From Haladaptatus cibarius D43 (GTDB lineage: Archaea; Halobacteriota; Halobacteria; Halobacteriales; Haladaptataceae), in assembly GCF_000710615.1 (NCBI RefSeq), contig NZ_JDTH01000002.1, positions 364,082-428,081 on the forward strand: a stretch of 64,000 nucleotides of DNA, given 5' to 3'. The position numbers and the translations under genes were made by a program. The notes beneath the pieces were generated by a model, which ran no database searches, was not told the origin of the DNA, and saw only the letters and a program-made list of their open reading frames with translations. Shown one piece after another: positions 5,669 through 14,225 of the stretch. How positions within the stretch are numbered: the stretch's first letter is position 1; each line of letters opens with the position of its first letter.

Positions 5669-5740
5669 GGGCTCGTAGATCAGTGGTAGATCACTCCCTT
5701 GGCATGGGAGAGGCCCCGGGTTCAAATCCCGGCGAGTCCA
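5669..5740 (+). tRNA. tRNA-Ala(GGC)
   Basis: A 72-base cloverleaf. The acceptor stem GGGCTCG (5669-5675) pairs with CGAGTCC (5733-5739) and A is the discriminator base. The anticodon arm is CTCCC-TTGGCAT-GGGAG, giving anticodon GGC. The T arm is CCGGG-TTCAAAT-CCCGG. No CCA is encoded. The last 28 bases serve as the left attachment site of the integrated element that begins directly after the gene, and the tRNA stays intact. Confidence 0.95.
5713..5740. repeat. attL: 3' end of tRNA-Ala (28-bp direct repeat, copy 1)
   Basis: The T arm and 3' acceptor strand of tRNA-Ala. The same 28 bases recur exactly at 11733-11760, just beyond an integrase gene. This is the usual signature of a tyrosine-recombinase element integrated in a tRNA 3' end. 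Confidence 0.9.
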
Positions 5741-6002
5741 TCCTCACTTCGTTCGGCTGGTATTCGGCATACAGCACCGCATTTTACCGTAATCCGCAAC
5801 CGTATAGCCGAGATTTCGAGCGAGGTTCCGGCAACCCCGTGACTCTTGATTTCGAGTGAGACCGTGACACCAGTGCGAGCCGTCCGGTGGTTCCTAATAT
5901 TGGATAGTGGTTCTACAGAGTTAATTGTACTGGTCGTCAATTATTGTATCTTAGATAGCACAAAGAATATAGTATTATGGATTGTAATGCATCGTGTAAT
6001 TC

Positions 6003-6416
6003 ATGTCTGCTAAGAACATTCCGTCTTCGGTTCCAGTGTGTAGTAGCATCGACGAGAAGAACGAAGAATACCAAGAGGCACAAAATGAACAAAGGCCGTT
6101 CCTTGCCGTCGTTGATGATGACGACCTTCCCGGATGGCAAGCAATCTATGTGATGGATACTACAGGCGAGGGGCGCGAGAATTGGTACTATCTTACTGAC
6201 GAAGGCGTTGAGATGGTTGAGAAGCATCGAAGTAGCTCTGAAAATCATTTAGAACATGATTCTTGGACTGCAAACTGCTCTGATATTCGGGGAGAACTCC
6301 ACGGTCTTGCAAAGGGTGACGCGGAGTATCTTGCCGACAAGTTTGCTGAAGTAGTTTGGGATGAAGACTACTGGAAGAAAGTTACTCTACGCGAGGTTTT
6401 CCAAGGTAATTACTGA
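6003..6416 (+). CDS. Hypothetical protein of the integrated element
   Basis: A 137-residue acidic soluble protein. I do not recognise a family. The middle reads RPFLAVVDDDDLPGWQAIYVMDTTGEGRENWYYLTDEGVE in outline: a strand-rich start followed by a predicted helical part that ends in a charged KFAEVVWDEDYWKKVTLREVF stretch. It has no signal peptide, membrane segment or cysteine cluster. It is the first gene after attL, transcribed rightward alone, with an AT-rich upstream region (about 5930-5990) that could hold its promoter. Confidence 0.6.
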   Translation: MSAKNIPSSVPVCSSIDEKNEEYQEAQNEQRPFLAVVDDDDLPGWQAIYVMDTTGEGRENWYYLTDEGVEMVEKHRSSSENHLEHDSWTANCSDIRGELHGLAKGDAEYLADKFAEVVWDEDYWKKVTLREVFQGNY

Positions 6417-6630
6417 ACCCGGGTGAATGTATTTTAAATTTGAAACTAATCCTTTCCGAGCTATCAGAAAGTAGGCAAAGATGAATCACCCGGCAATGTC
6501 CGAAACAAACCGTAACTCCCGACCATTGGACAAGTTCGTATTTCTTGTCAGACTCTGATTGTTCTAACAGAGATGCACAAGTAGAAAGAGTAAGACAGAA
6601 AGATGGCGGAAAGAGACTGATACAAATTAC

Positions 6631-7002
6631 CTACTCCCGCTCGATAGTCGGCTTTTCCTGAATCAGATAGCCCTCTCGGTCGCACTGACTCTCAAACTCC
6701 TTAATTGCCCCATCGACGCTATCAGTACGGATTCCGATAGACAGTCTGGTGTCTTCGCCTGTGTCGGTGTTCTTTGCGTCGGCACTTACTCGAATGACGG
6801 TGTCGCTACTCGGCTGTGCCTCTTCCGAGTAGGACATACTGTATGCTATCACTCCGAATATCCCGAATAATCCCACGGCAAAGAACCAGAGGACGGGGTC
6901 TTTGTCATTGTTGAGAGCGTCCCACGTAACACCGATTGTCGCCCCTATCCAGAACAAACCAACGATAAGAAAGACAAACCCAAGAACTCCCATCACCGAC
7001 AC
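6631..7002 (-). CDS. Small two-helix membrane protein of the integrated element
   Basis: A 123-residue protein. Residues about 4-25 (LGFVFLIVGLFWIGATIGVT) and 38-56 (VLWFFAVGLFGIFGVIAYSM) are membrane helices joined by a short polar loop (ALNNDKDP). The remaining 65 residues form a soluble tail with IRVSADAKNTDTGE and a helix around FESQCDREGYLI. I recognise no family. It is transcribed leftward as a single gene. A GGCGGAAAG motif that recurs in the element lies just beyond its stop and another just upstream of its start. Confidence 0.6.
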   Translation of the reverse strand: MSVMGVLGFVFLIVGLFWIGATIGVTWDALNNDKDPVLWFFAVGLFGIFGVIAYSMSYSEEAQPSSDTVIRVSADAKNTDTGEDTRLSIGIRTDSVDGAIKEFESQCDREGYLIQEKPTIERE

Positions 7003-7261
7003 CTCTGTTTCACTGGTACTGCCATCATCAAAGTAAAATTGATGTAGCTACTACATATCATTTTCTTACTCTCTGTGACAGTGACAAGTAGAAGGGAAAC
7101 CAGTAAGCTGGCGGAAAGCGACCTCGGGACTTTCAGAACCAGCAGACAAGCCTATGAGAACCAGACAAATACCCATCAAATGCAAACATTTATTTTATTC
7201 CACCCACTCTCTATAGCGAGGAGTTAACACCCATTAGTGGTAACGCTCCTCGCTGATTACT

Positions 7262-7798
7262 ATGCCGTTCGATGAAAACCACTCAGAGCCGATAGTATCG
7301 CCAGATACGAATAATTGGACGGATTTTCACTATCATGAACTTCCACGCCATGAATACCAGAAGCGCAAGAAATACAGGAGACTTGCACGGTACAATACCG
7401 GAATTGGTCATGGAGATTGGAGCAACCAAGAATTACTACGCCATATGGAGAATTTGCACCGGTTCGATGCAATTGCAGGCCAGCTAAAGATGGATAGGTC
7501 TCAGAAAAAACGTGCCCGCAAACATTATTCCTCACTCGATTTCCGAGGATTGGGACGACGAGTTGAACTGGTTGCCTTCTGTGTCTGCGTACACGTCTGC
7601 AACAATGATGACCGAATATTTAGCGACCCGTATCGTCGTCACGGTAACGGCTGGAAACGCTATCATCCCCAACAGAATGACGAGAACAATGACCCTCTCT
7701 TCGTAAATGTAGCGGAGAGTATCGGACTTGAAGAAGACGATATTCAGTCGATGATGTCCCGACTTCGACACGACCTTGACGACCGACTGTTTCAGTAA
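7262..7798 (+). CDS. Unknown helical protein, possibly related to haloarchaeal RNA polymerase epsilon-like / cyclin-like proteins
   Basis: A 178-residue protein. The central region (LLRHMENLHRFDAIAG, then KKRARKHYSSLDFRGLGRR, then VELVAFCVCVHVCNNDD) and the end (YHPQQNDENNDPLFVNVAES) read as a chain of helices like one cyclin-type repeat. From memory this pattern resembles haloarchaeal proteins labelled RNA polymerase subunit epsilon; I could not verify that. If correct, the element would carry a transcription-associated factor. It is monocistronic, with a short AT-rich upstream region. It has three closely spaced cysteines (CVCVHVC) but no standard zinc motif. Confidence 0.55.
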   Translation: MPFDENHSEPIVSPDTNNWTDFHYHELPRHEYQKRKKYRRLARYNTGIGHGDWSNQELLRHMENLHRFDAIAGQLKMDRSQKKRARKHYSSLDFRGLGRRVELVAFCVCVHVCNNDDRIFSDPYRRHGNGWKRYHPQQNDENNDPLFVNVAESIGLEEDDIQSMMSRLRHDLDDRLFQ

Positions 7799-8374
7799 CG
7801 GGGCGATACACCTATTTAAACCCCCCTCCCCCTATATAAACCGTTGTATACTACTATTAGTAGAGGGAGTCAGAAGGGAGGAAGCCAAATGAAGAGCCAG
7901 AAGGAAGGCGGAAAGTGGGTGGAGGAAAAAGAGTACCCCTTCCAGCGATTAACCAGGACACTACAAAACAGGAACCAGTTGTAGCACATGGGGAGGAAGT
8001 CACTTTCCGCCAGTACAGAGACACCACACTTTCCAAGGCAGGAAAACTCCGTGTAGCTGTCACTGTAATACTCCACCGAAGCCTCTTTTCGACTTCAAAG
8101 TAGCATATTCCAGATAGAGTGAACTTTGGATTTGGCTATTGTCCTGCTTTGCACCCTGCCCAATAACTATAGATATTATCCAGAACCAGAAGCCATGTTA
8201 CCCACTTACAGGAGCTGAGAACCCGGATAGCAGAGGTTAGAACATTGGCTACCCCCAGTGGGGGGGTCATAATAAGGTAAGTCGCCTCGCAACGATATAC
8301 TATTTTCGCTTCAATTAGGGAAATTTGCCGAGTGTCACTTTCCGCCGTTTTACTGGAAAGCCCTTTGTATTGCC
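7799..8374. other. Gene-free stretch of the element with repeated GGCGGAAAGTG motifs and hairpins
   Basis: No supportable gene. It holds CCTATATAAAC (a TATA-like box near 7832), a 6+1+6 inverted repeat CTACTATTAGTAG (7851-7863), the 11-mer GGCGGAAAGTG on the plus strand at 7907-7917, the same 11-mer on the minus strand at 8001-8011 and 8336-8346, and a G/C hairpin ACCCCC-AGTG-GGGGG at 8251-8265. Shorter 9-base copies of the motif lie at 6605-6613 and 7110-7118. Repeats of this kind in a gene-free part of a mobile element could mark a replication origin or a regulator's binding sites. Confidence 0.5.
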
Positions 8375-8515
8375 TTAGTATTCTTTCTCACCTCGAACAG
8401 AGATACCTTCAAGCGAGAGGTTGTGGTCATCAGCTACGTTCATGAGGTCTCCCAAGAACTCGCCTGTAATTTCGTCTTGCGGAATACCCTCGAAAAGGAG
8501 ATGTGTGCTTCGCAT
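8375..8515 (-). CDS. 46-residue unknown protein (paralogue at 13456-13686)
   Basis: Begins MRSTHLLFEGIPQDEI and ends SLEGISVRGEKEY. I do not recognise the family, but it is real: a 39-residue ungapped segment is about half identical (19 of 39) to the protein encoded on the minus strand at 13456-13686, with shared LFEG, P, EI, EF, ADxH and GISVR. Its ATG overlaps the TAA of the upstream zinc-type gene, so the two form an operon. The small size and position suggest a DNA- or protein-binding accessory factor of the element. Confidence 0.65.
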   Translation of the reverse strand: MRSTHLLFEGIPQDEITGEFLGDLMNVADDHNLSLEGISVRGEKEY

Positions 8516-8668
8516 TTAGGCGTCCTCCGTGTAGCAGTCGAAGCACGGGAGTTTGTCGGTGTCTGTACCGGGACACCACTTCTCTCCGTTCACACAACCT
8601 GAGGTGCTTACCGACAGCGTCAGTTGTCCAGCGATACGTTTTTCCGTCGTAGTGGTCTTGCTTGACAT
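8516..8668 (-). CDS. 50-residue four-cysteine protein, probable zinc-binding
   Basis: The protein runs MSSKTTTTEKRIAGQLTLSV and continues to a C-terminal half with Cys25, Cys32, Cys42 and Cys45 (the last two as CFDC). The paired cysteines suggest a small zinc knuckle. It is the first gene of a leftward pair; its TAA runs into the ATG of the 46-residue gene. It faces the winged-helix gene across a short region containing a perfect 14-base palindrome, which may be a shared operator. Confidence 0.6.
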   Translation of the reverse strand: MSSKTTTTEKRIAGQLTLSVSTSGCVNGEKWCPGTDTDKLPCFDCYTEDA

Positions 8669-8761
8669 GGCTTTCTGCTCCACAGAAGGCCCCGTCCGAG
8701 TGTTCCAGCACTCGGGCTTTTAAGTGAACAATGCCCCAAGGGACGACAACCTTCTTACCAG

Positions 8762-8775
8762 TAACTACGTAGTTA
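8762..8775. promoter_or_regulatory. Perfect 14-bp palindrome, candidate operator
   Basis: TAACTACGTAGTTA is its own reverse complement. It lies between the leftward small-gene pair (start 8668) and the rightward winged-helix gene (start 8846). A related half-site CTCGTAGTCA lies near 8801. The adjacent regulator is the natural candidate for the binding protein; this is inferred. Confidence 0.55.
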
Positions 8776-8845
8776 TTAGTGTTAAATCTTGTGCCACTAA
8801 CCTCGTAGTCACAGGAATTATACTGTCGTCTGTCTCAGTTATCCT

Positions 8846-9082
8846 ATGGAAAGAGAACGGGACGAAGGTGGGAAGTACACTGAGCAAGTGACGCTTGAGA
8901 GTGTGCTATCCGTCTTCGAGGACGCAGAGATTCCGGTTTTGACTGCTACGGAAATTGCCGAGGAGCTGGGTTGTTCCCGACCTTCGGCGTACAACAAGCT
9001 GGAAACGCTCGGAGAGCAAGGAGAATTGCATAAGAAAAAGGTGGGGGCACGAGCAGTGGTTTACATCTCTCCGAATTTGTAG
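8846..9082 (+). CDS. Winged-helix DNA-binding regulator of the element
   Basis: A 78-residue protein consisting of one winged helix-turn-helix. LTATEIAEELGCSRPSAYNKL (residues about 32-52) is a clear helix-turn-helix with a recognition helix, followed by a two-strand wing (GELHKKKVGARAVVYI). This size is typical of small haloarchaeal regulators on plasmids and viruses. It probably controls its own promoter and the divergent pair through the palindrome at 8762-8775. The downstream AT-rich operon starts about 100 bases later and has its own TATA-like box. Confidence 0.75.
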   Translation: MERERDEGGKYTEQVTLESVLSVFEDAEIPVLTATEIAEELGCSRPSAYNKLETLGEQGELHKKKVGARAVVYISPNL

Positions 9083-9150
9083 CTATGGTTTTGAAGAGGG
9101 GAGAAAGTCCATTGTCAATGTATGAGATAACGAGTCCCAATCCTTGGCTT

Positions 9151-9156
9151 TTTATA
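9151..9156 (+). promoter_or_regulatory. TATA-type box of the AT-rich two-gene operon
   Basis: TTTATA in the context GGCTTTTTATACCAG, 31 bases before the ATG at 9187. This spacing predicts a transcript that starts at or a few bases before the start codon (leaderless type). It is one reason for preferring the start at 9187 over an in-frame ATG at 9085. Confidence 0.5.
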
Positions 9157-9186
9157 CCAGATATCCTTACACAACGTAAGAGAATC

Positions 9187-10050
9187 ATGTCAGACACCAA
9201 GTTCTATTTTACGGAATATGAAGTAAACGGAATACTCACTACTTTGTTTGATTTTGACTCGCAAAAAACCCGTGAAGAGCGAGAAAGAGAAGTGTTGAAA
9301 GATTATATCCGGAAAGATGGGCCAATTATTGAGGGAGAATCGGGGACGTGGTATTTTGGTCGTATAGAAGATGACGGGGATTATGAACTTGGAAAGTTTG
9401 GGAAGGTCTACACAGAAGAGCCGACCACTTACGACGAAGAAGAAGGCGATTTTATTGATGATGTCCAACCTAACAAAGATGCTGACTATTCGATGTTTAT
9501 TATTGACTACTCAAACAATCTCCTGATTTACAATACAAAAAATCGAATTGGACATCAACAGTTCCGGAAATATTTCGCAGACGGTTTTGAGAAGGAAAAT
9601 AACGGGGTTGTTTCATTAGAGACAGAGTATGTGAGAAACAAAGAAGCGGTAGAGAATGTAGTGAATGAAAAACCTGTCTTGAAAGCAGATTTAGAACTCA
9701 AGCCGTCTAACCCATCCTCAGAGCCAGAATGGGAGAACTTAGATGAAAGCATTCAAAAAATGCTGGCAAAGGAGTTAGATATTATTGCAGAGAGTAAAGA
9801 AGGCAAGAGTCTGAATATGGACGAAGACCTTCTGGAGCAAGCGGTTGAGATGGCACAAACAGAATATGGCATCGATTATGAAATAGTCTATGTTGACAAC
9901 GGAAATGGCGACGAACAGATTAAAACAATCAACAAAGAGAGAGACCCTGTGAGTAGGACAGAAGAAGAACCAGATACTCTTGGTGGTCTTCGTACTTATG
10001 CCTCAGAATTTATTACTTACGCTACCTCATATCTGAACCAAGATGGCTAA
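9187..10050 (+). CDS. Unknown cytosolic protein, first gene of an AT-rich two-gene operon (candidate defence component)
   Basis: A 287-residue protein of unrecognised family. It starts MSDTKFYFTEYEVNG. The N-terminal half is strand-rich (GTWYFGRIEDDGDYELGKF; YSMFIIDYSNNLLIYNTK) and is followed by an acidic linker and a helical C-terminal part (MLAKELDIIAESKEGKSL; LLEQAVEMAQ). No nuclease, ATPase or HTH motif is visible. It overlaps the next gene by 8 bases, so soluble protein and membrane partner are made together. Codon use is much AT-richer than the host (many AAA, GAA, ATT and AAT codons), pointing to recent transfer. The arrangement recalls the two-gene Kiwa and Rex systems, but I see no sequence match. 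An in-frame ATG at 9085 would add 34 residues but lies upstream of the TATA-like box. Confidence 0.65.
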   Translation: MSDTKFYFTEYEVNGILTTLFDFDSQKTREEREREVLKDYIRKDGPIIEGESGTWYFGRIEDDGDYELGKFGKVYTEEPTTYDEEEGDFIDDVQPNKDADYSMFIIDYSNNLLIYNTKNRIGHQQFRKYFADGFEKENNGVVSLETEYVRNKEAVENVVNEKPVLKADLELKPSNPSSEPEWENLDESIQKMLAKELDIIAESKEGKSLNMDEDLLEQAVEMAQTEYGIDYEIVYVDNGNGDEQIKTINKERDPVSRTEEEPDTLGGLRTYASEFITYATSYLNQDG

Positions 10051-10630
10051 TGAAGGTTTTTTCCACCGACTTCGTGATGGTGGAACTTTTCGAGTGGTAA
10101 CTGGATATGATTTGTATGTATCCCTATTAATGACGGTGCTCCTCTTTTCTACTGTTGGAAGAAGTATAACCACTTATAAATTAGACATTTTTATTAAAAA
10201 TGCAACGTCTCTCTCAGGTTCGTTGACTGCGGTTATTATTACTGGGACTGCTATCTTAGTCTCCCTTACAGATTCTGATTTTTTAGTACTCCTAAAAAGA
10301 GAGGATATCTATAGCAATCTTATGTCTACTTTTGAGTACACAACTATACTTTCCATATTTGTATCTGTATTTGGAATTGTCCTACAAGCGTACGAATACT
10401 CGTATGCCGAGGTATATCTTTTCATATTTTCCTTTATATACCTAATATTTGCTGTTTCAAGCTTGGTATCCAAAATAGTTTCATTTGGGGAGAAAAAAGG
10501 AGACGTAGCACTTATAAACAAACTGAGGAAGGAAACAGAGAAACTCCAACAGTCCGACTTTGACAACCAAATAGACGAAACTCAAGTAAACAAAGAAAAG
10601 GAATCAGAGCCAGAAAATAATACTCAATAG
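10043..10630 (+). CDS. Four-helix membrane protein, second gene of the AT-rich operon (candidate effector)
   Basis: A 195-residue protein with four hydrophobic segments: about 25-42 (VSLLMTVLLFSTVG), 57-76 (LSGSLTAVIITGTAILVSL), 100-118 (TILSIFVSVFGIVLQAY) and 123-145 (VYLFIFSFIYLIFAVSSLV). A charged, probably coiled tail of about 50 residues follows (KLRKETEKLQQSDFDNQ). No transporter or enzyme motif is visible, so a pore, sensor or membrane anchor is the simplest reading. It starts inside the end of the upstream gene (8-base overlap) and shares its strong AT bias. The integrase lies tail-to-tail about 20 bases downstream. Confidence 0.65.
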   Translation: MANEGFFHRLRDGGTFRVVTGYDLYVSLLMTVLLFSTVGRSITTYKLDIFIKNATSLSGSLTAVIITGTAILVSLTDSDFLVLLKREDIYSNLMSTFEYTTILSIFVSVFGIVLQAYEYSYAEVYLFIFSFIYLIFAVSSLVSKIVSFGEKKGDVALINKLRKETEKLQQSDFDNQIDETQVNKEKESEPENNTQ

Positions 10631-10652
10631 CATTGTTTCTTATCAGGTCAAA

Positions 10653-11651
10653 TTATAATTTGTTCAAAAACTCTTTCCTCCGTTTCCGCTTTTGCCCCGG
10701 CGTTCCTTTATCGTAGTGCTTATCCAGCACCTCTTGACTCACGTTTGCCCGGTCACTGACTGCCTTGGCAGGCCACCCATTGTTCCGGTGGTGCGTGATT
10801 GACCCTTTTCGTATTGCGTGAGGACTGACCGAGGACGGGCATTTGCTGGCGTGCTTGCTTCTCGCCGCCTTGCAGTCGTCCTGAGTTCGGTTGTGAGGAC
10901 ATTCATTGGTGTAGTGACACGGTCGGGTAATCCTGTAGATGTTCTCTCTGATGGTCGTCTTGTGCGCTCTGCCCGCTGACGTTCCGATAAGCGGGATTCG
11001 TCCATGGTCGTCCTCTGCCTTCGGGTGGTGTTTATCAAGGTAGTCCTGCACGACTTGGACGACCTCCTCGGAGAGATTGATTTCCCGTTCGCCGCGTTCT
11101 TTGTTCTTCAGGGGAGTTTCCGCCTGAGGTCTGTGTACCGCTTTGATGTAGCCCTCTCTCGGATAGAAGTCGTCAACATCGAAGGCGAACAACGTGCTGG
11201 TACGGATTCCAGTATGCCACAAAAGCTGGAAAATGACGTGTCGAAGGGTAGCGTATTCGTAGGTCTGCAAGTAGCTCAGGATTGCCTCTGCTTCCTCTGA
11301 GCTGATTGTCGTGTCGTCAACGTCCTCGTCCATCCCAAGTTCGGGGAGTTCCAGCTTTTCGCTGGTTCCGTCCTCGACAGCGTCCATCTTCTCGCAGAAC
11401 CGAAGAAAGACTCTGACTGTCCCTAACTGGTTCTTCAGCGTTACGTTGTTCACGTCCTCGGCACGCCAAACCTTGTATCGGTGTAGGTGACGACCATTGA
11501 TTTCATTCAGATTGTCTATCCCGTTCTCGTCGCACCATTCTACGAAGCGACGGAGTCGGTAATCGTGATTCTCTTTCGAGGACTGCGTAAGGTCGGTTCG
11601 TCCATTGAGATAGTCCTGTACTGCTTGTCGGGGGGTGAGTGGTTCCAACAT
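10653..11651 (-). CDS. Tyrosine recombinase / integrase of the tRNA-Ala element
   Basis: A 332-residue phage-type integrase. Residues 1-100 form the SAM-like core-binding domain (QAVQDYLNGRT, then NHDYRLRRFVEWC). The catalytic domain follows with Arg150 (HTGIRTSTL), His278 and Arg281 (HAIRKGS) and the nucleophile Tyr313 (LDKHYDKG). Between about 245 and 271 it carries four cysteines (C-x5-C-x8-C-x10-C), a probable zinc-binding insertion just before the HxxR box. The start at 11651 (MLEPLTPRQ) fits the domain better than an in-frame ATG twelve codons upstream. It sits beside attR and should catalyse integration at the tRNA-Ala 3' end. Confidence 0.92.
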   Translation of the reverse strand: MLEPLTPRQAVQDYLNGRTDLTQSSKENHDYRLRRFVEWCDENGIDNLNEINGRHLHRYKVWRAEDVNNVTLKNQLGTVRVFLRFCEKMDAVEDGTSEKLELPELGMDEDVDDTTISSEEAEAILSYLQTYEYATLRHVIFQLLWHTGIRTSTLFAFDVDDFYPREGYIKAVHRPQAETPLKNKERGEREINLSEEVVQVVQDYLDKHHPKAEDDHGRIPLIGTSAGRAHKTTIRENIYRITRPCHYTNECPHNRTQDDCKAARSKHASKCPSSVSPHAIRKGSITHHRNNGWPAKAVSDRANVSQEVLDKHYDKGTPGQKRKRRKEFLNKL

Positions 11652-11732
11652 GGTTCCTTGACGCAGGAACCACCTGTGGTCGGGCACCTCTGGGCACGGG
11701 CCTAAAACCGCGTGAAGCGGAGCGAGCGCGGT

Positions 11733-11760
11733 GCCCCGGGTTCAAATCCCGGCGAGTCCA
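11733..11760. repeat. attR: 28-bp copy of the tRNA-Ala 3' end (copy 2)
   Basis: Exact copy of 5713-5740. It contains the T arm and acceptor 3' strand but no upstream tRNA half, so it is a remnant of the original target and not a second tRNA. Confidence 0.9.
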
Positions 11761-11832
11761 CTTCCTTCGCTCGTTTCACTCGCTCAGTCAGTGGACTCGC
11801 CGACCTTCGCAAACAGGCCGCCGTTTGCTCAG

Positions 11833-11846
11833 TCCCGGCGAGTCCA
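11833..11846. repeat. Third, partial copy of the att sequence
   Basis: TCCCGGCGAGTCCA matches the last 14 bases of the tRNA-Ala 3' end. It lies 72 bases beyond the full attR copy. It may be the scar of an earlier or tandem integration that brought in the methyltransferase patch to its right. Confidence 0.55.
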
Positions 11847-12024
11847 TGGCGAACGCAGTGAGGAATGGACGAGCGGGATTTTAATTAGACAAGACGCACG
11901 CCCGCGGAGCAAAGTTCTCGTGACTGACGTAGGAGAAACGAGAACAGAGAAGAACGTGTTTTTCCGGGGAAGCGGGAATTCCCGTCAGTTTTCTGTACAT
12001 TCTATATTATTAATTTATATTCTG

Positions 12025-12044
12025 TGTAGGCATTTCTGCCTACA
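12025..12044. promoter_or_regulatory. Inverted repeat in the methyltransferase promoter region
   Basis: TGTAGGCA-TTTC-TGCCTACA: a perfect 8-base stem with a 4-base loop. It lies between the TATA-like run TTTATATT (12014-12021) and the ATG at 12095. It could be an operator, possibly for autoregulation, or a leader hairpin. Confidence 0.5.
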
Positions 12045-12094
12045 GAATCGAACCGGATAATTACTAATCGAGAGAACTAATCGCCAGTAATCAG

Positions 12095-13465
12095 ATGAAA
12101 GGAATCGATTTGTTCTGTGGCGCTGGCGGTTTCGGAAGTGGATTCGAACAATTCGGAATGGATGTTCTCTATGGTATCGACGTCAACGAAATGGCGCTCG
12201 AAACGTTCGACCGGAATCATGAGGGGGAATCGATACAGCACGACATTAGCGAGGGAGTTCCGGAGAAACTCCGCGGGATAGATGTCAATGTCGTCTTCGG
12301 GAGTCCGCCGTGCCAAGGATTCAGTGACGCCCGAGGGAGCCGTCGACTCGACGACGAGCGCAATCAACTGGTGTTCTCGTTCATTCAGTGGGTCGGGGAA
12401 CTCCAGCCAGAATACGTGATGATGGAGAACGTCGCTGGAATGACGACCATTGGGGAAGAGTTTCTGGACGCCGTCGAGAGGGAATACCGCGATGTGGGGT
12501 ACGAAGTCGAATGGGCGAAATTGAACGCCGCAAACTTCGGCGTGCCACAGACGCGAGAACGGGTCATCTACTTTGGCGTCAGAGAAGATTCGCCGATTAC
12601 GCCGACACTGCCGAATGGAGACTACACCGAAAACGGAGACGGGCAACTTTCTCTCTCCGGAAGGGAAATGAACGGATGGAGAACCGTCGAACAGGCCTTC
12701 GAAGACCTACCGGAACCGACCGACGAGGGAACCATCGAACTGCCGCCCCTATCCGAGTATCCGGATAACGATTACCTCCGAGACATTAGAAACGGTGGTC
12801 GAAGAACGTACAACCATATCGCCGAAACACCTGCGGATAATGCAGATACTCGGGCAATCATCGAAAATCTTCGTCCCGGCGAAATGTACCGTTCGAGTCG
12901 GTTTGGCGACCGCTACCGGCAAGTCTGGGATTTGCTTTCGGATAGATTCACGGAAACCGAACAGGACTGTCTCCATTTCATCGCCCGACACCGTACCCGC
13001 TCTGCGTTCAAAATGGGTGATAAAGGCGTTGGGGCAGTTCCCGACTCCAAAATCGCGCATGGATTGGAACACGACGACGACACGGTGTACACTGCGCTTC
13101 AAGACCTGTTGGCCGATGGATGGGTGCGAACGGACGAAGATGGGGATACCCTCGGCTACGACCTCAATACGAAGTCCGGAATCCGACCGCGATACATGCG
13201 CTTGAACCCGGATGGCCAATCGAATACGATACTGACGACCGATTTCAAACCACGCGACAAACTGCATCCGACCGAAAACCGTGGACTATCACTGCGGGAG
13301 GGTGCCCGGATTCAAAGTTTTCCCGATGAGTTCGAGTTCGTCGGCTCGTTCGGCGATATTGCAAATCAAATCGGAAATGCGGTGCCGCCACTGATGGCGA
13401 AAGCACTGGCAGAGCATATACAAACAGTCGATGAAGAAATCAATCAACGCGCTGTTCAGAAGTGA
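12095..13465 (+). CDS. DNA (cytosine-5)-methyltransferase, orphan
   Basis: A 456-residue C5-cytosine methyltransferase that transfers a methyl group from S-adenosylmethionine to cytosine in DNA. Motif I is FCGAGGFGSGF (residues 6-16), motif IV is PPCQGFS (71-77) with catalytic Cys73, motif VI is ENV (from Glu111), motif VIII is QTRERV, and motif X is NQIGNAVPP near the end. The region of about 250-380 residues is the target-recognition domain and includes a segment resembling a small winged helix (DDTVYTALQDLLADGWVRTDEDG). No restriction endonuclease gene lies beside it. It follows the element's attR and probably arrived horizontally. Its target sequence cannot be read from the gene. Confidence 0.95.
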   Translation: MKGIDLFCGAGGFGSGFEQFGMDVLYGIDVNEMALETFDRNHEGESIQHDISEGVPEKLRGIDVNVVFGSPPCQGFSDARGSRRLDDERNQLVFSFIQWVGELQPEYVMMENVAGMTTIGEEFLDAVEREYRDVGYEVEWAKLNAANFGVPQTRERVIYFGVREDSPITPTLPNGDYTENGDGQLSLSGREMNGWRTVEQAFEDLPEPTDEGTIELPPLSEYPDNDYLRDIRNGGRRTYNHIAETPADNADTRAIIENLRPGEMYRSSRFGDRYRQVWDLLSDRFTETEQDCLHFIARHRTRSAFKMGDKGVGAVPDSKIAHGLEHDDDTVYTALQDLLADGWVRTDEDGDTLGYDLNTKSGIRPRYMRLNPDGQSNTILTTDFKPRDKLHPTENRGLSLREGARIQSFPDEFEFVGSFGDIANQIGNAVPPLMAKALAEHIQTVDEEINQRAVQK

Positions 13466-13686
13466 ATTGGAACACTGGAATACTGCCGACAAAAGAAAAA
13501 TCCCGAGCCGAAATCCGACGCCCTCCTCACCGAAATTCCCAATCTTTCAATCCCGTGTTCATCTGCAGACTCCGTCAACTCAAGAATGAACTCGTCGTGA
13601 ATCTCACTTCGAGGAGTTCCTTCGAAGAGGAAACGGGTGTTTTCACTAACGATACTCTTTTCTTGAGAGGAATTATTTGGCGACAT
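13456..13686 (-). CDS. 76-residue unknown protein, paralogue of the element's 46-residue protein
   Basis: The core NTRFLFEGTPRSEI to LGISVR is about half identical over 39 ungapped residues to the protein at 8375-8515 inside the tRNA-Ala element. It has an extra 15-residue N-terminus and a different C-terminal end (ending CRQYSSVPIHF). The end looks unlike a folded tail, and the stop overlaps the methyltransferase stop by 10 bases, so the C-terminus may be altered by a frameshift or fusion. It could be a remnant. Its presence suggests that the methyltransferase patch came from a related element. Confidence 0.5.
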   Translation of the reverse strand: MSPNNSSQEKSIVSENTRFLFEGTPRSEIHDEFILELTESADEHGIERLGISVRRASDFGSGFFFCRQYSSVPIHF

Positions 13687-14225
13687 GCTTCGGGAAAGCC
13701 CAAAGCAAACGAGGTAGGTGCTGGTTCCACCTGCCTTTTACAGCGAAATCCCGTTTACTTCGTCTGACAGATGCTTCGCTGGTGAGTTCATTCTGTTGGT
13801 TGATGAGAAAAAATCGAAATCGGAGAGCATTCGATACTCCCGCCAAACGAACCACAAACACCCGAGGTGAACTTTCGGAAACGAATTCCTCCACGCTGTT
13901 TCATCGATTTCGAATCACGATCACCAATGAAAGATTTATTACTCATCGGGATACAGCCAGAACTGCGGTGGCTTCGATTCGAAGCTATCGCCATAGAGCC
14001 AAATCAGTCATCACGGAATCCACGCGGGAAGACTCATTTCGAGAAACTACCGCGTCGGATTCCGGTTCTCCCCCCTCTCGAAAGAATGTTCAATAATCGG
14101 ATATATATCCGTTCTAGTGGGTAAAAACCACTGTACTGCAAACCGATAATTACAAATCTGACATTCAACACATGTATATTAATTTTAACAAGGGTTTTTA
14201 ATGGATTAGTGATTGGCGATATTCA
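13687..14225. other. Gene-free accessory stretch before the pilus locus
   Basis: About 540 bases in which I can support no gene; the open frames on both strands have composition unlike coding DNA here. The last 120 bases are AT-rich (GTATATTAATTTTAAC; GGTTTTTAATGG) and carry the pilB promoter. The GC content is lower than the host average, so this may be a decayed part of the accessory patch. Confidence 0.5.
14195..14202 (+). promoter_or_regulatory. TATA-type box of the pilus operon
   Basis: TTTTTAAT centred about 28 bases before the ATG at 14226, the spacing expected for a leaderless haloarchaeal transcript. It drives the operon that runs to 23020. Confidence 0.55.

What the first reader, a model, noticed from the sequence alone, without database searches (positions are those of the whole stretch)
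9187..10630. AT-rich two-gene operon (soluble protein plus four-helix membrane protein): candidate undescribed defence or membrane-effector system
The two genes overlap by 8 bases, share a strong AT bias unlike the host, sit beside the integrase, and encode an unrecognised 287-residue cytosolic protein and a 195-residue four-helix membrane protein with a coiled tail. The layout parallels Kiwa (KwaA/KwaB) and Rex (RexA/RexB), where a sensor acts with a membrane partner. I find no sequence similarity to either.
Basis: inference. Interest (0 to 1): 0.75.

Follow-up and report, generated by a model that had tools for sequence, protein, structure and literature searches.

The report
Haloarchaeal RexAB-type phage-exclusion gene pair
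Two overlapping genes on a small integrated element in a salt-loving archaeon look like distant relatives of RexA/RexB, the pair with which phage lambda makes an infected bacterium shut down and so stops a rival virus; no report of such a pair in archaea turned up in the papers searched.

Summary
In detail: gene A (9187-10050, 287 aa, soluble) and gene B (10043-10630, 195 aa, four hydrophobic segments) overlap by 8 bases and are strikingly AT-rich. They ride on a 6,020-bp element in a tRNA-Ala gene (28-bp repeats, convergent integrase) that is missing at the same site in 3 of 3 congeners examined. A occurs in 8 of 391 Halobacteria genomes, each of another genus; in 7 of these B is the next gene. 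The AlphaFold2 model of A has lambda RexA (8TWQ) as best PDB match (Foldseek E 3.3e-6; VIA-align Z 9.5), then RdgC and CENP-N, a fold group already published for RexA. Sequence links are faint: DUF4747 (an orthologue passes Pfam's cut-off; the window protein does not) and the CarolAnn/Sbash RexA-like proteins (0 of 400 shuffles as good); none to lambda RexA itself. B's links to RexB-type proteins are weak. Best reading: a haloarchaeal RexAB-type abortive-infection pair, A as DNA-binding sensor, B as membrane effector. Function is inferred, not shown.

The parts
5713..5740 (+). attL: 28-bp direct repeat at the 3' end of the tRNA-Ala(GGC) gene (tRNA 5669-5740)
   Evidence: empty sites in congeners
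6003..6416 (+). 137-aa ORF of the element, function unknown
   Evidence: only weak hits
6631..7002 (-). 123-aa ORF with two hydrophobic segments, function unknown
7262..7798 (+). 178-aa protein of phrog_12649, with relatives in haloarchaeal virus records; probably virus-derived cargo
8846..9082 (+). 78-aa helix-turn-helix regulator (HTH_11 / phrog_18890), upstream of A
9150..9156 (+). TATA-like element (TTTTATA) 31-37 bases before the start codon of A; consensus resemblance only
9187..10050 (+). Gene A: 287-aa soluble, acidic protein with predicted RexA/RdgC-type fold, proposed sensor
   Evidence: model; lambda RexA top PDB match; DUF4747; CarolAnn-family similarity
10043..10630 (+). Gene B: 195-aa protein with four hydrophobic segments and a charged C-terminal tail, proposed RexB-type membrane effector
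10653..11687 (-). 344-aa tyrosine integrase of the element, convergent with A/B
11733..11760 (+). attR: second copy of the 28-bp repeat

Best explanation
A and B are a RexAB-type (CarolAnn/Sbash-like) exclusion pair carried as cargo by a small integrative element of haloarchaea. Shown here: a conserved, co-inherited, tightly linked gene pair; a soluble A predicted to have the RexA/RdgC fold; a B with four hydrophobic segments; mobile-element carriage. Inferred from the studied bacterial relatives: A is a dimer that clamps DNA non-specifically and is switched on by an infecting virus (replication or recombination intermediates, or a viral protein); activated A acts on B in the membrane; B then permeabilises or depolarises the membrane, growth and ATP fall, and the virus cannot finish its cycle, so element and kin population survive.
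For: AlphaFold2 model of A, pLDDT 83.3, pTM 0.75, from 8 sequences: in a library of 350,542 PDB chains the top two are lambda RexA 8TWQ (E 3.3e-6 and 3.2e-5, prob 1.00), then RdgC; VIA-align Z 9.5, 146 residues, rmsd 4.5 to RexA, then CENP-N 8.3, RdgC 8.2; PMC11077077 groups RexA with RdgC, IML3 and CHL4 (passages). By my reading of the secondary structure, 7 strands, an inserted strand-helix domain and a long C-terminal helix follow RexA's split layout. DUF4747: E 3.1e-5 (window, 24 bits, cut-off 27) and 1.4e-6 (G158, 28.4 bits, over cut-off). Profile similarity of A to CarolAnn gp44/Sbash gp30/Sejanus gp46: 0 of 60, 0 of 60 and 0 of 400 shuffles as good. B: best viral structure match is from phage ctylc9, which also gives A's second-best viral match; a 165-aa Sbash protein is rank 4, prob 0.97; phrog_17119 is hit by window B (1.2e-4), G158 B (1.2e-6) and, weakly, lambda RexB (0.034). 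Segment spacing is close to that of RexB. A and B distances correlate, r 0.918, 2 of 5,000 permutations as high; pN below pS in every comparison. Neighbours in relatives: integrases, ApeA HEPN, type IIG restriction-modification, Schlafen AlbA_2.
Against: No function was tested. A versus lambda RexA by sequence profile is at chance (32 of 60 and 40 of 60 shuffles as good); window proteins match neither Pfam RexA/RexB nor PADLOC RexA/RexB. The A-CarolAnn match has an hhalign probability of only 2.2% and E 0.021, and is the best of six profile pairs tried. Z to RexA is only 1.2 above CENP-N; an unrelated triphosphate tunnel enzyme ties with Iml3 at Z 7.0; whole-chain superposition is poor (TM 0.39, rmsd 15.6). 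So the fold group is safer than RexA itself. The DUF4747-Rex link is weak: lambda RexA, CarolAnn gp44 and Sbash gp30 gave no DUF4747 match here, and the Butters paper gives E 140 for its own HHpred hit. B's link is weak: 10 of 300 shuffles as good against RexB, 19 of 300 against CarolAnn-type partners; no BFVD match to B reaches E 0.001; CarolAnn gp43 and Sbash gp31 do not hit phrog_17119. One genome has A without B. No relative was found in viral contigs, phages or plasmids.
Confidence: 0.72

Rival explanations
1. Butters-like reversed logic: A itself is the antiviral DNA-binding effector, and B is a membrane anchor that holds A back until infection.
For: In mycobacteriophage Butters gp30 alone protects and gp31 attenuates it (PMC7542560, passages; PMC12894663 Discussion). 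A exists without B in G141. A is more conserved than B (64% v 47% identity to G158).
Against: 7 of 8 A genes keep B next to them. Three other systems are reported to need both genes, besides lambda.
Confidence: 0.15
2. Element housekeeping: A is an RdgC/RexA-like DNA-binding protein that steers integration, excision or replication of the element, with B as accessory; antiviral effects would be secondary.
For: RdgC is the next fold match after RexA in Foldseek; [quoted passage not shown] the pair lies beside the integrase and an HTH gene.
Against: G158's integrase lacks the N-terminal SAM-like match that the window's has, and G175 carries the pair with no integrase recognised by eye among the ORFs printed, so the pair seems not tied to one integration module.
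Confidence: 0.08
3. Membrane toxin (B) and antitoxin (A) that keep the element in the population.
For: Two small overlapping genes, a membrane protein second, mobile element.
Against: The fold match of A is the DNA-binding RexA group; in CarolAnn neither gene alone is toxic (passages); A and B matched no toxin-antitoxin family.
Confidence: 0.04
4. Kiwa-type or SLATT-type system.
For: Layout only: a soluble protein and a four-helix membrane protein.
Against: No DUF4868, Kiwa or SLATT model listed at E up to 1; the fold match is RexA.
Confidence: 0.01

Closest known systems
CarolAnn gp44/gp43 and Sbash gp30/gp31 (Gordonia and Mycobacterium prophages; 'DUF4747/CarolAnn')
   Same: Soluble gene first, overlapping four-TM gene second (26- and 41-base overlaps in the records); profile similarity of the soluble proteins; structural match of B to a 165-aa Sbash protein, the length of gp31
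   Different: A is about 85 residues shorter, very acidic, archaeal; no tblastn match of A or B in phages; B has no phrog_38328 match
Phage lambda RexA/RexB
   Same: Gene order, size of A (287 v 279 aa), predicted fold, four hydrophobic segments with near-equal spacing
   Different: No significant sequence-profile match for A; other Pfam/PADLOC families; a small HTH gene rather than a CI-type repressor lies upstream; genes overlap instead of a 15-base gap
Pseudomonas putida RexABpp (PP_5643/PP_5644)
   Same: Its modelled soluble protein also has RexA 8TWQ as closest structure (paper: DALI Z 8.8 for a dimer-DNA model; here VIA-align Z 9.5 for a monomer); four-TM partner; mobile carriage
   Different: Sequences were not compared here
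RdgC and CENP-N/Iml3/Chl4 fold relatives
   Same: Same group in the structure search
   Different: No Pfam RdgC match; no four-TM partner known to me (recalled)
Kiwa (KwaA/KwaB)
   Same: Layout only (recalled)
   Different: No model match; other fold hit

Membership tests
RexAB-type two-gene exclusion systems (lambda, CarolAnn, Sbash, P. putida) | Soluble gene directly followed by a four-TM gene | tested here: met
   7 of 7 pairs adjacent; four hydropathy segments in 6 of 7 B genes, the seventh (G086) ends after three
RexAB-type two-gene exclusion systems (lambda, CarolAnn, Sbash, P. putida) | Soluble protein has the two-domain RexA/RdgC fold | tested here: met
   Foldseek rank 1 in the PDB, E 3.3e-6; VIA-align Z 9.5, on a predicted model; RdgC and CENP-N are close behind
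RexAB-type two-gene exclusion systems (lambda, CarolAnn, Sbash, P. putida) | Carried by a prophage or other mobile element | tested here: met
   att repeats, integrase, empty sites in 3 of 3 congeners examined
RexAB-type two-gene exclusion systems (lambda, CarolAnn, Sbash, P. putida) | Membrane protein homologous to RexB / gp31 | tested here: inconclusive
   Weak links only
RexAB-type two-gene exclusion systems (lambda, CarolAnn, Sbash, P. putida) | RexA dimer binds DNA non-specifically; both genes needed for exclusion; membrane damage on activation | not testable with these tools
   Needs bench work
Pfam RexA (PF15969) / RexB (PF15968) and PADLOC RexA / RexB models | HMM match | tested here: not met
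   Lambda proteins match, window proteins do not. CarolAnn gp44/gp43 miss all four models too; Sbash gp30/gp31 miss the Pfam pair and were not scanned against PADLOC. So this excludes the lambda subfamily, not the RexAB type
DUF4747 (PF15931) | HMM match over the cut-off | tested here: inconclusive
   Window A 24.0 bits (cut-off 27), not over it; G158 orthologue 28.4, over it; 3 of 8 family members match at E up to 1
Kiwa / SLATT | HMM match to their Pfam or PADLOC models | tested here: not met
   None listed at E up to 1; that the libraries hold these models is recalled
RdgC | RdgC HMM match | tested here: not met
   No Pfam RdgC match listed at E up to 1; as a fold RdgC comes next after RexA

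The most novel reading that the evidence does not exclude
The first archaeal RexAB-type abortive-infection system: a divergent branch spread by small integrative elements among haloarchaeal genera, in which a highly acidic DNA-clamping sensor triggers a four-helix protein to breach an ether-lipid membrane in high salt. Rex exclusion would then span two domains of life and need no lambda-like immunity region.
Probability: 0.6. Interest if true: 0.68.

Novelty: new variant of a known kind. Interest (0 to 1): 0.56.

Why it matters
Rex exclusion was the first abortive-infection system associated with anti-phage defence, yet how it is triggered is unsettled; a 2026 paper counts five described RexAB-like systems, all from bacteria or their prophages (PMC12894663), and a 2024 paper lists more RexA homologues in actinobacteriophages (PMC11077077). 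DefenseFinder reported RexAB only in Proteobacteria, in a set that included 374 archaeal genomes (PMC9090908). A further lineage, in archaea and not caught by the RexA/RexB models, would give an independent sequence set for finding what is essential, and a host where depolarisation can be tested in a different membrane chemistry. It would also give a likely role to such soluble/four-TM pairs now called hypothetical.

Tried and rejected
Kiwa, SLATT and other defence models: no match. Weak Pfam/NCBIfam hits of B (Tetraspanin E 0.041, 14 bits against a cut-off of 32.1; DUF7299, ASTER, RsxE) and of A (NCBIfam, E 0.055 and worse) were set aside. Homologues of A or B in IMG/VR, INPHARED phages and plasmids: none; these scans reach close relatives only. 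DUF4747 in 148 genomes of the phylum: only the window's own genome, below cut-off, and 0 of 14 control genomes. PDB by sequence: none for A; two chance-level hits for B. A versus lambda RexA by profile: at chance; single-sequence CarolAnn comparisons likewise; of six profile pairs only A against the three-member CarolAnn family stood out. In the same test lambda RexA against the CarolAnn family (19 and 23 of 60) and RexB against its CarolAnn counterpart (34 and 54 of 60) were at chance too, so the method is blind to kinship that the literature accepts. The VIA-align list for B is helical bundles (NINJ1 among them, Z 10.0) and was given no weight. Dropped hits: A in G137 (E 6e-4), in a 405-aa ORF that looks coiled-coil and unrelated by eye; B in G136, G246, G304 (E 1.6e-4 to 6.4e-4), partial matches of 77-82 positions in open frames of 616, 640 and 260 residues, judged without reading those loci. 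dS was saturated in all but one comparison, so no dN/dS is claimed. Toxin-antitoxin reading: considered, no family support. Library searches on Kiwa structure and RexA + RdgC + abortive (112, 0 papers) added nothing.

Full report
What is there. Two genes on the + strand, A (9187-10050) and B (10043-10630), overlap by 8 bases. Their joint GC is 0.382, against a mean of 0.585 for other stretches of that length in the window; 0 of 1,194 are as low. A has no hydrophobic segment and a net charge of -37; B has four segments.

The element. A tRNA-Ala(GGC) gene at 5669-5740 ends in a 28-bp sequence repeated exactly at 11733-11760, 6,020 bp away. Between them lie a 178-aa gene of phrog_12649, with relatives in 53 records of the phage collection (Halorubrum 39, Haloarcula 11, Halophage 2, Hardygib1 1; the 20 listed are mostly named as tailed haloviruses), a helix-turn-helix gene, A, B, a convergent tyrosine integrase, and two ORFs of unknown function. 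I examined three congeners. In G515 the tRNA end runs straight into window 11733-11846; in G517 and G518 too the window's flank up to 5740 continues into sequence from beyond 11733, and nothing of 5742-11732 aligns. So A and B are mobile cargo at this site. Whether these three carry the pair elsewhere was not tested.

The family. A protein search of 391 Halobacteria genomes gave A in 9, one of them a chance hit in my judgement; the profile search gave 8, each from a different genus. B gave 7 by protein and 10 by profile, of which three were partial matches that I set aside; the other 7 are next to A. So 7 of 8 A genes have B next, and 7 of the 7 B genes kept follow A. A draw of 221 genomes from the phylum gave 2 hits, both already known. 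The gap between A and B runs from an 8-base overlap to +6. Protein distances of A and B correlate (r 0.918; 2 of 5,000 permutations as high), and differences per synonymous site exceed those per non-synonymous site in every comparison, with dS mostly saturated. G141 has A without B. In G086 the B frame ends early, after three segments.

Neighbours. I called ORFs in 20-kb stretches around 7 relatives with a rough filter, printing the middle part, and tested ten chosen neighbours with Pfam. Tyrosine integrase genes lie within about 2.3 kb of the pair in G086, G350, G158, G300 and G031, so with the window in 6 of 7 pair loci; none was recognised by eye near G175, or near the orphan A of G141. G158 repeats the window's order: A, B, convergent integrase, then a tRNA (tRNA-Leu); its att repeats were not sought. 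G086 has an ApeA-type HEPN gene downstream; G300 has a type IIG restriction-modification gene and a Schlafen AlbA_2 gene. That is a mobile, partly defence-rich setting.

The fold of A. An AlphaFold2 model from eight haloarchaeal sequences has mean pLDDT 83.3 (the five models range from 83.3 to 68.2). In a library of 350,542 PDB chains Foldseek ranks the two chains of lambda RexA first (E 3.3e-6 and 3.2e-5) and RdgC next (3.6e-4 to 6.7e-4); nothing else is below 0.05. VIA-align, a second look at Foldseek's own matches, gives RexA Z 9.5 (146 residues, rmsd 4.5), human CENP-N 8.3, RdgC 8.2, chain N of the yeast inner kinetochore 7.8, yeast Iml3 7.0, but also a triphosphate tunnel enzyme 7.0; its note warns that Z under 8 may be a common arrangement. 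PMC11077077 (abstract, passages and section 18 read) describes this group, RexA, RdgC, IML3 and CHL4, and a split globular domain of seven strands with an inserted dimerisation domain and a C-terminal helix. By my reading the model has the same order of elements. The whole-chain superposition is poor (TM 0.39, rmsd 15.6), as a hinge between two domains could cause, but it limits what can be said.

Sequence links of A. DUF4747 matches window A at E 3.1e-5 (24 bits, under the 27-bit cut-off) and the G158 orthologue at 1.4e-6 (28.4 bits, over it); 3 of 8 members match at E up to 1. The Butters, CarolAnn and Sbash papers (passages read) name DUF4747 as a domain shared by their cytoplasmic proteins and RexA; the CarolAnn paper calls its match weak and the Butters paper gives E 140. 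An EMBO J paper of 2026 lists 'DUF4747/CarolAnn' among immune operons (passages). My own hmmscan finds lambda RexA only in its own family PF15969, and CarolAnn gp44 and Sbash gp30 in none, so that link is the papers', not mine. Directly, the A profile against CarolAnn gp44, Sbash gp30 and Sejanus gp46 scores 24.15 over 79 columns; hhalign itself gives that a probability of 2.2% and E 0.021, but 0 of 400 block shuffles reach it. It was the best of six pairs tried. Against lambda RexA A is at chance; so is lambda RexA against the CarolAnn family.

Links of B. Segment spacing is close to RexB's. phrog_17119 (no function given) is hit by window B (1.2e-4), G158 B (1.2e-6) and weakly by lambda RexB (0.034), but not by CarolAnn gp43 or Sbash gp31. 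The B model (pLDDT 71.7) has as best viral match a protein of phage ctylc9, the phage that also holds A's second-best viral match, and at rank 4 a 165-aa Sbash protein; gp31 is 165 aa, so I take it to be gp31. E-values are poor (0.0077 and 0.16). Profile shuffles against RexB (10 of 300) and the CarolAnn-type partner (19 of 300) are only suggestive.

How it probably works. From the studied relatives: RexA-like proteins dimerise and bind DNA without sequence preference (PMC11077077); in P. putida the RexB-like protein, stimulated by its RexA, damages the membrane and stops growth (PMC12894663, abstract and Discussion read); CarolAnn and Sbash need both genes, and in CarolAnn a viral protein is toxic only in their presence (passages). 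I therefore propose A as sensor and B as membrane effector. Every step after 'two co-inherited proteins of these shapes on a mobile element' is inference. The Butters case, where the soluble protein is the effector and the membrane one restrains it, is the main rival.

What is new. The library searches showed me no archaeal report: DUF4747 (5 papers), RexAB + archaea + defense, haloarchaea + RexA (3), RexA + archaeal + abortive infection, RexAB + haloarchaeal (0). For these I saw listings; I read passages of the five DUF4747 papers and of DefenseFinder (PMC9090908), which states RexAB only in Proteobacteria; most other papers in those lists were not opened. Subscription papers and preprints are not covered. 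The pair also escapes the RexA/RexB models of Pfam and PADLOC. I call it a new variant of a known kind, because a model test of the lambda family failed while anatomy and predicted fold agree.

Noticed in passing
window 12095-13465 (region 11915-13870): A 456-aa DNA methyltransferase gene (PADLOC type II methyltransferase, E 7e-232) just beyond attR; no alignment to window 11915-13870 was found in the stretches of G517 and G518, so it looks like a separate accessory insertion at the same hotspot, near a partial third att-like copy at 11835.
   Followed up: partly
L025:9738-12356 (G141): Orphan A gene without B, convergent with a SocA/Panacea-like gene (E 1.8e-4, under its cut-off) and a 340-aa protein with three hydrophobic segments and no Pfam match: perhaps a Panacea toxin-antitoxin pair with a membrane toxin.
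   Followed up: partly
L027:5740-14416 (G300): A/B sits between a 1,299-aa type IIG restriction-modification gene and a Schlafen AlbA_2 gene plus integrase: a small defence island.
   Followed up: partly
L022:11587-13038 (G086): ApeA-type HEPN defence gene downstream of A/B; the B gene there ends early after three hydrophobic segments.
   Followed up: partly
L034:3618-4064 (Mycobacterium phage Sejanus gene 45): Annotated hypothetical, but matches phrog_38328, the PHROG of CarolAnn gp43/Sbash gp31 (E 1.2e-5): likely the RexB-type partner of gene 46.
   Followed up: no
phrog_17119: PHROG without a function, touched by the archaeal B proteins and weakly by lambda RexB: a candidate RexB-type family.
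   Followed up: no
window 7262-7798: 178-aa gene with relatives (up to about 35% identity) in 53 halovirus records, function unknown; suggests the element derives in part from a virus.
   Followed up: partly
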